The position numbers were made by a program, and so were the translations under genes. The notes beneath the pieces are model-generated. The model was not told the DNA's origin and searched no databases. It saw nothing but the letters and a program-made list of their open reading frames with translations. Shown one piece after another: positions 113-49,734 of a stretch of DNA of 64,000 bases. Origin of the DNA: Halioglobus sp. (lineage in GTDB: Bacteria > Pseudomonadota > Gammaproteobacteria > Pseudomonadales > Halieaceae); the NCBI GenBank assembly GCA_002699145.1, contig PABK01000058.1:240427-304426 (forward strand), in the 5' to 3' direction. Each line of letters starts with the position of its first letter. Positions within the stretch are counted from its first letter, which is position 1.

Positions 113-168
113 TCCCCGAATCGATCAACCGTGATTAGTCCATTCACCCAGTGAATGCGGAGAGAGCC

Positions 169-1125
169 GTGAACGTCAACCGCATCGACCTCAACCTGCT
201 GGTCTATCTCGACGCCCTGCTGCGCGAGCGCAACGTCACCCAGGCGGCGCACCAGCTCAACCTGTCCCAGCCGGCCATGAGCAACGGCCTGCGCCGCCTG
301 CGCGAGGTGTTCGACGACCCCCTGCTGGTGCGCACCAGCGAGGGCATGACGCCCACCGAGCGCGCACTGGAACTGGAACCGGTGGTGCGCGAGGTACTGA
401 GCAAGGTGGACCACGCGGTACAGCCGCGCACCGCCTTCGACGCGGAAAACGCCGTGCGCGTCTTCCGCATCATGGCCAGCGACTACGCCGAGTCCACCTT
501 GCTGCCCACGGTGCTCGGCAAGCTGCGCACCCTCGCCCCCGGCCTGACCCTGGACATCATGACGCCCTCCGACGTCAGCTTCCTGGATGTGGAACGCGGC
601 AAGGTGGACATGCTCATCAACCGCTTCGACTCCATGCCCCAGTCCTTCCACCAGATCCACCTGTGGAACGACAGTTTCACCTGCGTGCTCAGCCCCGAGA
701 ACCCGGTACTCGAGGACTGGACCCTGGATGCCTACCTGCAGGCCAACCACGTGTGGGTGAGCAAGACCGGCATGGGCGTCGGCGTGGGTGTCAACCCCGC
801 CGACGTGCAGCGCCTGGGCTGGGTGGACGTGGCCCTGAACAAGCTCGGCAAGAAGCGCCAGATCCGCGTGTTCACGCGCCACTACCAGGCGGCGATGACC
901 CTCGCCGAGCAGAACGACCTCATCGTCACCCTGCCCACGCGCTGTGCCAACCTGAAGGTGAACAACCCGCGCGTGGTGCTGCGCGAACCGCCGCTGGACA
1001 TCCCGCCGCTGGAGCTGAAGATGGCCTGGAGCCCCCTGCTGCAACACAACCCCGCGAACAAGTGGCTGCGCAAGATCATCGCCGACACCGCGCGCGAACT
1101 CGACGGCCAGGAAGCGACGCCCTGA
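169..1125 (+). CDS. LysR-family transcriptional regulator
   Basis: A 318-residue LysR-type regulator. Residues about 4-62 form the winged helix-turn-helix, with the family pattern of a helix rich in AAHQLN followed by the recognition helix SQPAMSNGLRRLR and the wing LLVRTSEGMTPT; the remainder is the periplasmic-binding-protein-like effector domain. I chose the GTG at 169 because GGAGAG sits at a normal distance upstream; a GTG at 151 in the same frame would add six residues without a comparable ribosome site. The N-terminus resembles the NodD/LinR-like branch, but effector and targets cannot be read from sequence. The next gene, malate synthase, is on the same strand but separated by 316 bp holding a large hairpin repeat, so co-transcription is unlikely. 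Confidence 0.85.
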   Translation: MNVNRIDLNLLVYLDALLRERNVTQAAHQLNLSQPAMSNGLRRLREVFDDPLLVRTSEGMTPTERALELEPVVREVLSKVDHAVQPRTAFDAENAVRVFRIMASDYAESTLLPTVLGKLRTLAPGLTLDIMTPSDVSFLDVERGKVDMLINRFDSMPQSFHQIHLWNDSFTCVLSPENPVLEDWTLDAYLQANHVWVSKTGMGVGVGVNPADVQRLGWVDVALNKLGKKRQIRVFTRHYQAAMTLAEQNDLIVTLPTRCANLKVNNPRVVLREPPLDIPPLELKMAWSPLLQHNPANKWLRKIIADTARELDGQEATP

Positions 1126-1156: not shown

Positions 1157-1296
1157 GGTCCCGCGCCGCACAGGCCCCTTGCGGACGCTGTGGGCCGCGC
1201 CGAGGGAGTGGAGCGAGACCGCAGGGCTCGCGACCGACCGAGGGCAGCCCGGAGGGCCGCGGGTCGCGAAGCAAGGGGCCTGTGCGGCGCGGGACC
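1157..1296. repeat. Palindromic interspersed repeat, copy A
   Basis: A 140-bp element bounded by a perfect 26-bp inverted repeat (1157-1182 with 1271-1296) enclosing an 88-nt core (1183-1270). The core differs at a single base from the core at 48416-48503, while the arms of the two copies differ from each other at many positions yet are perfectly complementary within each copy. Inside the core, 1228-1235 can pair with 1262-1269 over 8 bp. It starts 31 bp after the lysR stop, where a terminator is expected, but has no T-tract. It may act as a transcript-end structure, a REP-like mobile repeat or a structured RNA. Open reading frames through it look like chance products of its composition. Confidence 0.85.
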
Positions 1297-1441: not shown

Positions 1442-3625
1442 ATGAGCGAGCGCATCCAAGTCGGCGGCCTGCAGGTCGACGCCGAACTCCACCAGTTACT
1501 CGAGCAGGACATCGCCCCCGGCACCGGCGTGGAGCCCGCCGCGTTCTGGCAGGCCCTGGCAGCCGTCGTCAGCGAACTCGGCCCGCGCAACCGCGAACTG
1601 CTGCGCGTGCGCGACGAGATGCAGGCGCAGATCGACGCCTGGCACCGCGCCCACCCCGGCCCCGACTACGACGCCGCGGCCTACCGCGCCTTCCTCGAGG
1701 AGATCGGCTACCTGTTGCCCGAGGGCGCGGACTTCCAGATCAGCACGCAAAATGTCGACGAGGAGGTGGCGACGCTGGCCGGCCCGCAACTGGTGGTGCC
1801 GGTGATGAACGCGCGCTACGCGCTGAACGCCGCGAACGCGCGCTGGGGCAGCCTGTACGACGCGCTCTACGGCACCGACGTCATCCCCGAAGACGACGGC
1901 GCGGAACGCGGCGGCGACTACAATCCCGTGCGCGGCGCGCGTGTCATCGCCTACGCGCGCGACTTTCTCGACCGCTACTGCCCACTGGCGTCAGGCAGCC
2001 ACGCCGACGCCCGCGCCTACCGCGTGCGCGACGGCGCGCTGGCGGTGGAACTGGCCGACGGCGCGCAGGCCGCGCTGGCGGAGCCGGGTCTGCTGCGCGG
2101 CTTCCGCGGCGAAACCGAGGCGCCCACGGCCATCCTGCTGCGCCACAACGGCCTGCACATCGAGATCCAGGTGGACCGCGCGCACCCGGTGGGCGCCACC
2201 GACGCCGCCGGGGTCAAGGACGTGCTGCTGGAGGCGGCGCTGACCACCATCCAGGACTGCGAGGACTCCGTCGCCGCGGTGGACGCGCAGGACAAGTCGG
2301 TGGCCTACCGCAACTGGCTCGGCCTGATGCGCGGCGACCTGCAGGACAGCTTCAACAAGGGCGGGCGCAGCATGACGCGCACGCTCAACCCGAACCGCGC
2401 CTACACGGCGCTGGACGGCGGCGAGCTGGTGCTGCCCGGGCGCAGCCTGCTGTTCGTGCGCAATGTCGGCCACCTGATGACCACCCCGGCCATCCTCGAC
2501 GCCGACGGCGCGGAGATTCCCGAGGGCATCATGGACGCCATGTTCACCGGCCTCATCGCCCTGCACGACCTGAACAAGACCGACCCGCTGGCGCGCAACT
2601 CGCGCGCCGGCAGCGTCTACATCGTCAAGCCGAAGATGCACGGGCCCGAGGAAGTCGCCTTCGCCTGCGAGCTGTTCGCGCGCGTGGAGGACGCCATCGG
2701 CGTCGCGCGCAACACCCTGAAAATGGGCATCATGGACGAGGAGCGGCGCACCACCATCAACCTCAAGGAGTGCATCCGCGCCGCCGGCGAGCGCCTGGTG
2801 TTCATCAACACCGGCTTCCTCGACCGCACCGGCGACGAGATCCACACCAGCATGGAGGCCGGCGCGATGACCCCCAAGGGGGCGATGAAGCAGGAGCCCT
2901 GGATCAACGCCTACGAGGACTGGAACGTCGACGTGGGCCTGCGCTGCGGGCTGCGCGGCCGCGCGCAGATCGGCAAGGGCATGTGGGCCATGCCGGACCT
3001 GATGGCGGACATGATGGAGAACAAGGTCGCCCACCCCGAGGCCGGCGCCAGCACCGCCTGGGTCCCCTCGCCCACCGCGGCGACCCTGCACGCCATCCAC
3101 TACCACCAGGTCGACGTCGCGCAGCGCCAGCAAGCGCTGCTGGGACAGCGCCGCGCCAGCGTCGACGACATCCTGCGCATCCCGCTCAAGGGCGCCGCGG
3201 GCCTGGACGCCGCGGACATCCAGCGCGAGCTGGACAACAACGCCCAGGGTATCCTCGGCTACGTGGTGCGCTGGATCGACCAGGGCGTGGGTTGCTCCAA
3301 GGTACCGGACATCAACAATGTCGGCCTGATGGAAGACCGCGCCACCCTGCGCATCTCCAGCCAGCACATCGCCAACTGGCTGCATCACGGCGTGTGCACG
3401 AAGGAACAGGTGACCGAGACCCTGCAGCGCATGGCCGCGGTGGTGGACGCGCAGAACGCCGCCGACCCCGCCTACCACCCCATGGCGCCGGACTTCGCCG
3501 AGAGCGTGGCCTTCCAGGCCGCCTGCGACCTGGTGTTCCTCGGCCACGAGCAACCCAGCGGCTACACCGAGCCCATCCTGCACGCGCGGCGGCGCGAGGC
3601 GAAGCGGCGCGCCGGCGCGCGGTAA
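1442..3625 (+). CDS. glcB: Malate synthase G
   Basis: Cytosolic enzyme that condenses glyoxylate with acetyl-CoA to make malate, feeding the glyoxylate bypass and glycolate use. The length, 727 residues, matches the G isoform (about 720) rather than the shorter A isoform. Family motifs are visible: [14 protein letters not shown], the arginine loop [18 protein letters not shown], the metal-ligand region [10 protein letters not shown], and [14 protein letters not shown] before the C-terminal plug with the [10 protein letters not shown] segment. AGGAC precedes the ATG. It stands alone: lysR ends 316 bp upstream and the next gene converges from the other strand 45 bp downstream. No isocitrate lyase is in the window. 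Regulation by the neighbouring LysR protein is possible but not shown. Confidence 0.96.
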
Positions 3626-16406: not shown

Positions 16407-16430
16407 AGGTGGTTCTCGCTTTTTTTCTAC

Positions 16431-16526
16431 TGGATTCCCGCGTTCGCGGGAATGACGGCGTGCTGGATTCCCGCTTGCGCGGGAATGACGGTGTGCTGGA
16501 TTCCCGCTTGCGCGGGAATGACGGTG
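16431..16526. repeat. Three tandem REP-like hairpins, 33-bp period
   Basis: Three copies starting at 16431, 16464 and 16497 of a unit with the palindrome ATTCCCGC...GCGGGAAT followed by GACGG. Copies 2 and 3 are identical through the palindrome; copy 1 differs in the loop. This dyad resembles the widespread dRS3/REP-type element seen in many proteobacteria. The spacing is too short and the between-repeat DNA is not unique, so it is not CRISPR. It lies just upstream of argJ and downstream of secA. Confidence 0.9.
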
Positions 16527-16562
16527 CCTCCCTGATTCATGGAACGGTGTTGCGAGGACCGG

Positions 16563-16623
16563 CGGGGAAAAACCCCTCCGGGGTGAGTATCTTGGCAGTC
16601 CGAGCCGCGGAGGGGTTTCCCCG
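16563..16623. repeat. Imperfect inverted repeat after secA
   Basis: Segment 16563-16580 and segment 16608-16623 are reverse complements except for two extra A residues in the left copy; the left copy can also fold locally as CGGGG-AAAAA-CCCC. The pair brackets a 27-bp loop and borders the 42-bp minisatellite. It could act as a transcription stop for secA, but no T-run follows. Confidence 0.55.
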
Positions 16624-16830
16624 GCGGGCCAGTGAAGTGGGCCCGGGTCCAGACCAACTCCCCCGGCGGGCCAGACAAGCGGACCCGGGGCCAGACCAAC
16701 TCCCCCGGCAGGCCAGGGAAGCGGACCCAGGGCCAGACCAACTCCCCCGGCGGGCCAGTGAAGCGGCCCCGGGGCCAGACCAACTCCCCCGGCGGGCCCG
16801 GGGCCAGACGAACCCGCCCGCCGGGGCCGC
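16617..16830. repeat. 42-bp minisatellite between argJ and secA
   Basis: The marker CCAGACCAACTCCC recurs at 16649, 16691, 16733 and 16775, exactly 42 bp apart, with a truncated fifth unit at 16804. Units share a block of CCCCCGGCGGGCCAG and differ at a few positions. Because 42 is a multiple of three, long frames run through it on both strands with 14-residue peptide repeats, but there is no ribosome site or recognisable protein, so I treat it as non-coding. Copy number is likely to vary between strains. Confidence 0.88.
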
Positions 16831-47839: not shown

Positions 47840-48268
47840 TCAAATATTCAGTGGCTGCGGTTGTTGCGCGGCGTGGGGGTGCTCGGTGCCCGCGTAGACC
47901 TTCAGCTTGCGGAACATGGCGCGGCCCAGCGGGTTGCGCGGCAGCATGCCCTTGACGGCGTTCTGGATGGCGCGCTCCGGGGCTTTCTCGATCAGTTTCT
48001 CGAAGGAAATGCTCTTCAGGCCGCCCGGGTAGCCGGTGTGGTGATGGTAGAACTTGTCGGTACGCTTGGCGCCGGTGACACGCACTTTCTCGGCGTTGAC
48101 CACGACGATGTAGTCGCCGGTATCCACGTGCGGGGTGTACTCCGCCTTGTGCTTGCCGCGCAGGCGGTGGGCGATTTCGCTGGCCAGGCGACCCAGGGTC
48201 TTGTCAGCAGCGTCCACCACGAACCAGTCGCGGGTGACGTCTTCTGCTTTGGCGCTGTACGTTTTCAT
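47840..48268 (-). CDS. rplM: 50S ribosomal protein L13 (uL13)
   Basis: 142 residues from the ATG at 48268 ([20 protein letters not shown]), matching the E. coli length. Conserved [17 protein letters not shown] and [16 protein letters not shown] are present. Preceded by a strong promoter. Confidence 0.98.
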
Positions 48269-48388: not shown

Positions 48389-48530
48389 GGGCTGGCGCCG
48401 CGCAGCCCTCCCCGCGGACGCTTTGGGCCGCGCCGAGGGAGTGGAGCGAGACCGCAGGGCTCGCGACCGACCGAGGGCAGCCCGGAGGGCCGCGGGTCGC
48501 GAAGCGGGGAGGGCTGCGCGGCGCCAGCCC
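48389..48530. repeat. Palindromic interspersed repeat, copy B
   Basis: Second copy of the element at 1157-1296, 142 bp. Perfect 27-bp arms (48389-48415 with 48504-48530) enclose an 88-nt core (48416-48503) that differs from copy A at one position. It lies between rplM and zapE, both on the minus strand, so it is at the 3' end of zapE and upstream of the rplM promoter. Relative to its upstream gene it is in the opposite orientation to copy A, so any function at transcript ends must be symmetrical. Confidence 0.85.
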
Positions 48531-48636: not shown

Positions 48637-49734
48637 TCAGGGGCGGTGCTCCCGCGCCAGGTACTCGAACGACTGCATCTCCTGCAGTCGCGAGACCGTG
48701 CGCTGGAACTCGAACTCGAGCTGCCCGCCGCCGTACAGCTCCAGCAGCGGCACCGCCGCCGCCAGCACCAGCTTGACGTTGCGGTCGTAGAACTCGTCCA
48801 CCAGGTTGATGAAGCGCCGCGCCTGGTCGTCCGTGCCGGCGACGAACTGTGGCACGCCCGACACCAGCACCGCGTGGAAGATGCGCGCCAGCTCGATATA
48901 GTCGTTCTGCGAGCGCGGACCGTCGCACAGCTCGGCGAAATCGAACCAGGCCACGTCCTCGGACACACGGCGGCAGGTCAGGTAGCGGCGGTTGATCTCG
49001 ATGCGCTCCCAACCCTGCCCCTGGTCCAGGGCCAGGCGGGAGAAGCTGTCCTGCAGCGAACGGTCCGCCGCCGCATCCAGCGGGCAGTGGTACAGCTCCG
49101 CCTGTTGCAACGTGCGCAGCCGGTAGTCGGTGCCCGCGTCGACATTCACCACGCGGGTGTACTTCTGCAGCATATCGATGACCGGCAGGAAGCGCTGCCG
49201 CTGCAGGCCGTTCTCGTAGAGCCGCTGCGGCTCGATATTCGACGTGGCCACCAGGCAGACGCCGCGCGCAAACAGCGCCTCCATCAGGCCGCCCAGGATC
49301 ATCGCGTCGCCGATGTCGGTGACGAAAAACTCGTCGAAGCAGATCACCCGCGCATCCTCGGCGATGCGCCCGGCGACGCCCAGCAGCGGGTCCTTCTCCC
49401 CCTCCAGCGCCGCCAGCTCGGCGTGCACGCGCTGCATGAAACGGTGGAAATGCACGCGCAGTTTGCGCCTGAACGGCAGGCACTCGTAGAAGTTGTCCAT
49501 CAGGTAGGTCTTGCCGCGCCCGACGCCGCCCCACAGGTACAGGCCGGTTTCCGGCTCCGGGGTGTCGCCGCGCAGGCGGCCGATGAATGCGCGCAGGCCG
49601 CCGCTCGATTGCGGTGCGCTGCACAGCCGTTCGTACAAATCCTGCAGCAGCCTGACCGCCTCCTCCTGGGCGGGATCGTGGCTGAAATCCTGCCGCTGGA
49701 GGTCCGCCTGGTAGCGTTGCCAGGGTGTCGTCAT
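48637..49734 (-). CDS. zapE: Cell division ATPase ZapE (AFG1-like)
   Basis: P-loop ATPase of the AFG1 family; in E. coli ZapE modulates Z rings under stress. 365 residues, with Walker A GGVGRGKT at 69-76, Walker B VICFDEFFVTDIGDA, and the sensor region LVATSNIEPQRLYENGLQR. Start ATG 49734. Its own promoter lies 40 bp upstream; the neighbour zapG diverges. Confidence 0.94.
   Translation of the reverse strand: MTTPWQRYQADLQRQDFSHDPAQEEAVRLLQDLYERLCSAPQSSGGLRAFIGRLRGDTPEPETGLYLWGGVGRGKTYLMDNFYECLPFRRKLRVHFHRFMQRVHAELAALEGEKDPLLGVAGRIAEDARVICFDEFFVTDIGDAMILGGLMEALFARGVCLVATSNIEPQRLYENGLQRQRFLPVIDMLQKYTRVVNVDAGTDYRLRTLQQAELYHCPLDAAADRSLQDSFSRLALDQGQGWERIEINRRYLTCRRVSEDVAWFDFAELCDGPRSQNDYIELARIFHAVLVSGVPQFVAGTDDQARRFINLVDEFYDRNVKLVLAAAVPLLELYGGGQLEFEFQRTVSRLQEMQSFEYLAREHRP

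What the first reader, a model, noticed from the sequence alone, without database searches (positions are those of the whole stretch)
1157..1296. Repeat element with a near-identical core but different, self-complementary arms (copy A)
The 88-nt core (1183-1270) matches 48416-48503 at 87 of 88 positions, while the 26-bp arms differ from the 27-bp arms of copy B at many positions yet each pair is perfectly complementary. Compensated change in arms beside an almost frozen core points to selection for a long stem or to a copying mechanism that regenerates arms. I do not recognise it as a named REP, attC or retron family.
Basis: partly seen in the sequence, partly recalled or inferred. Interest (0 to 1): 0.8.

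Follow-up and report, generated by a model that had tools for sequence, protein, structure and literature searches.

The report
Dispersed repeats: constant heads, drifting stems

Summary
In detail: arms 26/26 and 27/27 paired, heads 87/88 identical. It is not a two-copy oddity. A covariance model of the head finds 34 copies in this genome, 4-46 in nine other Halieaceae and 9-103 in twelve Chitinibacteraceae. The head is a three-way junction supported by covariation. In four copies whose heads differ at 1-2 of 88 positions, arms are 59-85% identical, yet all 105 counted arm cells still pair and 11 of 27 positions changed on both sides. Isolated arm mismatches are G-T 31 versus A-C 4 on the head strand (p=3e-6), so one particular strand seems selected to fold. 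Many copies lie in composites with outward-facing head pairs (38 of 38 pairs picked) and sister hairpins of the same design. Two Silvimonas terrae copies are absent at orthologous S. amylolytica sites. No Rfam family, plasmid, phage or viral contig matched; RAYT and reverse transcriptase tests gave no link. Best reading: a non-autonomous intergenic repeat recognised through a folded single strand (RNA or ssDNA), its arms changing faster than its head. Enzyme and function unknown.

The parts
1157..1182 (+). copy A, left arm (26 nt)
   Evidence: 26/26 complementary to 1271-1296
1183..1270 (+). copy A, 88-nt head
   Evidence: 87/88 identical to 48416-48503
1197..1261 (+). copy A, three-way-junction core
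   Evidence: model R1 match, 78.7 bits, E 7e-23
1213..1231 (+). copy A, helix P2 (1213-1217 and 1219 with 1225 and 1227-1231)
   Evidence: 4 of 6 P2 pairs change on both sides across 45 sequences
1247..1257 (+). copy A, helix P3 (1247-1250 with 1254-1257)
   Evidence: 2 of 4 pairs change on both sides
1271..1296 (+). copy A, right arm
48389..48415 (+). copy B, left arm (27 nt)
   Evidence: 27/27 complementary to 48504-48530
48416..48503 (+). copy B, 88-nt head; core 48430-48494
   Evidence: 87/88 identical to copy A; R1 78.7 bits
48504..48530 (+). copy B, right arm
151..1125 (+). LysR-type regulator; stop 32 nt before copy A
   Evidence: Pfam HTH_1 and LysR_substrate; position
1442..3625 (+). 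malate synthase G (glcB); start 146 nt after copy A
   Evidence: Pfam malate synthase domains; position
47840..48268 (-). ribosomal protein L13 (rplM); a promoter-like site at 48340-48312 lies between it and copy B
   Evidence: Pfam Ribosomal_L13
48637..49734 (-). AFG1/ZapE-type ATPase; its stop is 107 nt from copy B
   Evidence: Pfam AFG1_ATPase; position

Best explanation
Copies A and B are solo members of a dispersed, non-coding, non-autonomous intergenic repeat. One strand folds into a stem of about 26-31 bp capped by a conserved three-way-junction head. Shown: the family, the fold, its covariation, a mismatch bias that singles out one strand, outward-facing pairing of heads in composites, enrichment between convergent genes, and presence/absence at two orthologous sites. 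Inferred: the head (with loop d in composites) is what a trans-acting protein or RNA-processing enzyme recognises in single-stranded form (RNA or ssDNA) during spread; the stem need only be paired, so its letters are free to change. Also inferred: the arms change faster than the head because one arm can be copied from the other by replication template switching, pairing then being held by selection. The repeats survive mainly where they do least harm, past gene ends.
For: Copies: 34 in own genome, 4-46 in nine further Halieaceae, 0 in ten genomes chosen as lacking DNA matches; 9-103 in twelve Chitinibacteraceae. Fold: 97.8% of 585 cells paired, 7 of 13 pairs changed on both sides, 0/500 shuffles, slid controls 34-46%. 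Arms of four near-identical heads: 105/105 cells paired, 11 of 27 positions changed on both sides. Strand: isolated arm mismatches G-T 31, A-C 4, other 21 in 62 core hairpins; the col 13-53 pair is U-G in 33, C-G in 10, A-G in 2 of 45. Sister hairpin a (16 hairpins): 22 of 27 pairs changed on both sides, 100 doubly changed cells against 5 one-sided and 10 unpaired of 432. Pairs: 38 of 38 close pairs picked are minus-then-plus. Context: convergent neighbours in 19 of 30 classified Halieaceae heads (own-genome background 52 of 252 spacers) and 24 of 49 Chitinibacteraceae heads (background 56 of 207). Presence/absence: two S. terrae copies absent in S. amylolytica; no head near glcB in 15 relatives' loci or near rplM in 29.
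Against: No enzyme found: 0 heads at 15 Y1_Tnp loci and reverse transcriptase absent from G000. No target-site duplication seen by eye in two G131 composites. No replication-strand bias, 31 of 72 with positive GC skew, which a lagging-strand ssDNA transposon might show. No promoter-like site at copy A; the only one at copy B precedes rplM on the other strand. Sense orientation is not favoured among tandem genes (8 v 12 and 4 v 7), so readthrough RNA from neighbours is not the likely form. Loops a and d show no significant strand bias. The two empty sites lack about 450-630 nt of mosaic repeat, not the element alone.
Confidence: 0.5

Rival explanations
1. A family of independently transcribed small structured RNAs: the head binds a protein or metabolite, the stem protects it, and copies multiply by duplication rather than by a mobility system.
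For: One-strand bias (G-T 31 v A-C 4) and three-way-junction covariation are what a folded RNA gives. A second hairpin follows the core in composites and in Chitinibacteraceae.
Against: No promoter-like site at copy A (a sigma-70 consensus scan only). In one composite (L392) only 42 nt lie between the two outward-facing head hairpins, little room for two promoters. Copy number 4-103 varies widely among relatives.
Confidence: 0.22
2. Heads are homogenised by ectopic gene conversion among dispersed copies, while arms, flanking the conversion tract, drift with compensation. The head/arm contrast would then need no special arm-rewriting.
For: Heads 86-87 of 88 identical beside arms 59-85% identical in four copies. 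Outer head segments nearly identical among these four differ in the two more diverged solo copies, so constraint alone does not explain the identity.
Against: It does not explain how copies arose, or why arms stay 24-27 of 26-27 Watson-Crick paired. Heads remain recognisable between Gamma- and Betaproteobacteria, so there is constraint as well.
Confidence: 0.2
3. Ordinary 3'-end stem-loops or bidirectional transcription barriers that happen to share a loop.
For: Found past gene ends and between convergent genes. Canonical terminators were seen in the 160-nt flanks of only 7 of 17 elements, so the stems might serve at the rest.
Against: No T-run follows the stem of A or B on either side. A conserved 65-nt junction is not needed for termination (general knowledge). 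5 of 49 classified Chitinibacteraceae heads lie between divergent genes.
Confidence: 0.06

Closest known systems
REPIN / REP sequences mobilised by RAYT (Y1) transposases
   Same: Intergenic, many copies, hairpins in inverted pairs, non-autonomous (REP features recalled)
   Different: REP stems are conserved and short (recalled); here the stem varies and a 65-nt junction head is constant. Of 15 Y1_Tnp loci, 9 carry GGGGTCAG-type repeats and none a head.
MITEs
   Same: Short, non-coding, terminal inverted repeats, many copies
   Different: In MITEs the inverted ends are the conserved part (recalled); here the ends vary and the middle is constant. No target duplication seen (two composites).
Template-switch maintained hairpins (Monttinen and Loytynoja, PMC8794818; abstract, section list and start of introduction seen)
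   Same: Perfect stems kept through multi-base compensatory changes
   Different: That is a mutation mechanism described for RNA genes, not a dispersed repeat family; here it is only inferred.
Structured RNA families in Rfam 15
   Same: Covarying three-way junction
   Different: Neither copy matches at gathering score. With permissive search the best at copy A is 17.1 bits against a gathering score of 59; hairpins a and d of relatives draw only sub-threshold, mostly microRNA-precursor, hits.

Membership tests
REP/REPIN-RAYT | conserved stem sequence of a short palindrome | tested here: not met
   arms 59-85% identical beside heads 86-87 of 88 identical
REP/REPIN-RAYT | cognate Y1 transposase gene flanked by the repeat | tested here: not met
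   0 R1 matches in 15 Y1_Tnp loci of 12 genomes, up to 1.5 kb each side (four loci cut short at contig ends); distant Y1 genes acting in trans not excluded
REP/REPIN-RAYT | inverted pairs in intergenic space | tested here: met
   38 of 38 close pairs picked minus/plus; solo copies such as A and B also exist
MITE | conserved terminal inverted repeats | tested here: not met
MITE | target-site duplication | tested here: inconclusive
   none seen by eye in two G131 composites; boundaries uncertain
Retron ncRNA | adjacent reverse transcriptase gene | tested here: not met
   PF00078: 0 matches in G000; 7 of 32 genomes overall
Integron attC | R/L core boxes, integrase, cassette array | not tested
   no call made
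Rfam 15 RNA family | score over gathering threshold | tested here: not met
Covarying single-strand structure | compensatory changes above shuffles, slid controls near background | tested here: met

The most novel reading that the evidence does not exclude
A new class of bacterial mobile element defined by a folded single-strand head: each family keeps a constant head or loop (three-way junction, loop a, loop d, head e) and rewrites its 25-31 bp arms in concert during or soon after each jump, so the arms are a per-copy signature while only their pairing is inherited. Up to four such hairpins assemble into outward-facing composites.
Probability: 0.3. Interest if true: 0.85.

Novelty: new variant of a known kind. 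Interest (0 to 1): 0.62.

Why it matters
Interspersed repeats are normally recognised by their conserved ends; here the ends vary freely and a folded head is kept, so standard repeat finders are likely to split or miss the family. Near-identical heads beside diverged yet still paired arms give a natural test of whether long hairpins are kept by selection or rewritten by template switching, and the copies offer bait for finding the unknown factor that spreads them in two proteobacterial families.

Tried and rejected
RAYT mobilisation: not supported at the tested loci. Y1_Tnp occurs in 8 of 10 head-bearing and 4 of 10 head-free genomes, which is no clean link either way. Reverse transcriptase: 7 of 32 genomes, absent from G000. 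Plasmid and phage records (blastn of copy A) and viral contigs (exact head pattern): no match. Empty site for copy A: no head lies in the glcB loci of 15 relatives (one of them, L296, starts inside glcB), but the intergenic alignment is too poor to place the junction. Searches read minus-strand loci without turning them, and one search also misplaced L304; replace them, and only plus-strand loci are used. Literature: head and loop strings, 0 papers; concept searches gave no matching description (only listings and abstract starts seen). This covers only the held open-licence library.

Dropped or corrected: the c-hairpin arms were out of register and its counts are not used. Two d rows overlap in membership (the pattern of one also matches the other's loops) and are not summed. 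In one search mismatches of internal loops were mixed in (G-T 58, A-C 17, other 55); one search replaces it. Two of 118 heads (one 82-nt, one cut by a contig end) were left out (116), and 45 of the 116 were given. For one search I used 14 of 20 loop-a sites of G011 (one cut by a contig end, five not fetched) and 2 of 22 of G000, most of which share one stem. One search left out heads overlapping an ORF call (8 and 1) or with a gene further than 1200 nt (3), and counts both heads of a composite. One search looked only at the 160 nt outside each element. One search used only pairs that I picked by eye from the rows, whose list was cut; one overlapping chimera at a contig end (G000 C33) was left out. 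The survey is not blind: some stretches were chosen because they hold known copies.

Full report
Observation. Copy A (1157-1296) and copy B (48389-48530) are as described: arms 26/26 and 27/27 complementary, heads 87/88 identical. Both fold far better than shuffles (z -8.3 and -9.1, 0 of 200).

Not two copies. The 140-nt query gives 40 matches in the window's own genome (a few are the arms matching each other or pieces cut at contig ends). A head search at DNA level hits 3 of 18 genomes of the genus (own included) and 16 of 140 of the family, a few of these weakly. A covariance model (R1) finds 34 heads in G000, 46 in G013, 34 in G131, 13, 13, 12, 5, 5, 4 and 4 in seven others, none in ten genomes that I had chosen as lacking DNA matches, and 9 to 103 in twelve Chitinibacteraceae. 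At most 150 candidates per genome were scored, and pieces at contig ends count. In 369 genomes drawn from the class only the own genome gave strong matches. G230 gave a weak one (30.3 bits) that again sits on a long stem; two more weak hits look like chance. That search scored only 13 candidates per genome, so absence is not proven. Nothing was found in viral contigs with the exact pattern, or in plasmids and phages by blastn.

The head. 45 distinct heads, hand-picked for diversity from 116, align over 78 columns. The structure that I drew is a three-way junction: P1 base, P2 (GSGAG/CTCSC plus a C-G beyond a bulge) with a variable tip, and P3 (NCNC-GGA-GNGN). 97.8% of 585 cells are paired, 7 of 13 pairs change on both sides, 0 of 500 shuffles reach this, and slid versions pair 34-46%. 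RNAalifold, run without my structure, recovers most of P2 and P3 but not the P1 base, and adds a pair that is U-G in 33, C-G in 10 and A-G in 2 of 45 sequences, which points to the window's + strand as the folded one.

The arms. Among A, B and the copies on C52 and C6 (55 kb), heads are 86/88 to 87/88 identical, while arms are 16/27 to 22/26 identical per side. Of 27 arm positions 11 have changed on both sides and all 105 counted cells still form a standard pair; shuffles give 4.0 positions with double change on average. Outer head segments that are nearly identical in these four differ in the two more diverged solo copies, so constraint on the head alone does not explain the contrast. Either the arms change unusually fast, or heads are homogenised by gene conversion.

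Which strand. For 62 distinct core hairpins I took arm mismatches flanked by three Watson-Crick pairs on each side and counted distinct contexts on the head strand: G-T 31, A-C 4, other 21 (p 3e-6 for G-T v A-C). A DNA-symmetric process would give equal G-T and A-C. So pairing of this one strand, as RNA or as ssDNA, seems to be under selection. Loop a (3 v 1) and loop d (3 v 0, 8 v 3, 6 v 3; overlapping sets) point the same way but are not significant.

Composites. In G000 one fully covered copy shows a roughly 0.9-kb intergenic element with four hairpins: a, head on the minus strand, a spacer with tandem repeats, head on the plus strand, and d; pieces of the same kind lie at many contig ends. 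Loops a and d are themselves constant on variable stems: loop a has 22 sites in G000 and 20 in G011 at up to one mismatch, loop d 25 in G000, 5 in G049 and 1 in G011 at up to two. For 16 loop-a hairpins (14 of 20 from G011, 2 of 22 from G000), 22 of 27 pairs changed on both sides, with 100 doubly changed cells against 5 one-sided and 10 unpaired of 432. In several Mangrovimicrobium copies the element is symmetric, d-head-spacer-head-d, with d loops inverted at the two ends. All 38 close head pairs that I picked are minus-then-plus, spacing 112-619 nt. Chitinibacteraceae mostly carry single heads with short P1; of 68 second hairpins found after the head, with variable stems, 37 have the loop GCGAAG. 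A survey of 0.86 Mb of G000 (partly chosen for known copies) found 21 long hairpins: 13 carry the head or loops a/d, one a loop-a variant, two share a further head ('e') on different stems, five are other palindromes.

Context and mobility. Elements sit past gene ends: convergent neighbours in 19 of 30 classified Halieaceae heads against 52 of 252 own-genome spacers, and 24 of 49 Chitinibacteraceae heads against 56 of 207 spacers (own simple gene caller; both heads of a composite counted). Sense orientation relative to tandem genes is not favoured (4 v 7 and 8 v 12). Canonical terminators were found in the outer 160-nt flanks of 7 of 17 elements. GC skew shows no replication-strand preference in Chitinibacteraceae (31 of 72 positive). 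No head lies near glcB in the loci of 15 genus relatives, or near rplM in 29 family relatives, so A and B are at positions not shared with these. In 33 S. terrae loci compared with 0.8 Mb of S. amylolytica, four had a nearby match and two had both flanks. At both, S. amylolytica lacks the element and about 450-630 nt of surrounding mosaic repeat. This shows gain or loss between species, not the mechanism.

Candidate enzymes. Y1_Tnp genes occur in 8 of 10 head-bearing and 4 of 10 head-free genomes. None of the 15 loci has a head within the fetched flanks of up to 1.5 kb, while 9 of 15 carry GGGGTCAG-type repeats, probably their own REPs (the RAYT reading is recalled knowledge). Reverse transcriptase is absent from G000.

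Mechanism and limits. I infer a non-autonomous repeat recognised through the folded head of one strand, with arms free to change provided they pair. Template switching, which Monttinen and Loytynoja report as a source of compensated stem changes (PMC8794818, abstract and start of introduction seen), is the most economical source of concerted arm change. The one-strand bias says that selection acts too. RNA against ssDNA is undecided. No expression data, no enzyme and no target duplication are in hand.

Noticed in passing
L310:12243-12436 (-) and L343:9350-9534 (+), own genome: A further head family 'e' (GGGGCTTTCYGCGAGCACTGTGCGAATCC ... GTTGMGTTGCGCAGC) on two unrelated 31- and 26-bp stems.
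   Followed up: partly
L279 (G061) and L283 (G005), upstream of rplM: The intergenic site that holds copy B in this genome holds other long hairpins with different loops (TCGCTC...ATTCGCTC type) in two relatives: a possible hotspot (seen by eye).
   Followed up: no
Chitinibacteraceae loci, e.g. L209, L149: The second hairpin after the head has a variable stem, and an oligo just before it repeats part of its left arm, so the right arm could pair with either copy.
   Followed up: no
L211:6500-6600, L433:1590-1660, L031:3490-3585: Microsatellite-like tracts (GTTGNN, CTGGACTG units) on the 5' side of heads.
   Followed up: no
window 16577-16828: About five tandem copies of a 42-nt unit, beside three 33-nt CTGGATTCCCGC repeats at 16430-16528.
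   Followed up: no
L348-L353, L355-L357, L320; window 61330 and 61618: GGGGTCAG-type repeats near Y1_Tnp genes, probably a separate RAYT/REP system in Halieaceae; two CTGACCCC sites in the window.
   Followed up: partly
L247:1460-1600 (G230, another family of the class): A distant head match (30.3 bits) again on a long stem, suggesting wider spread.
   Followed up: partly
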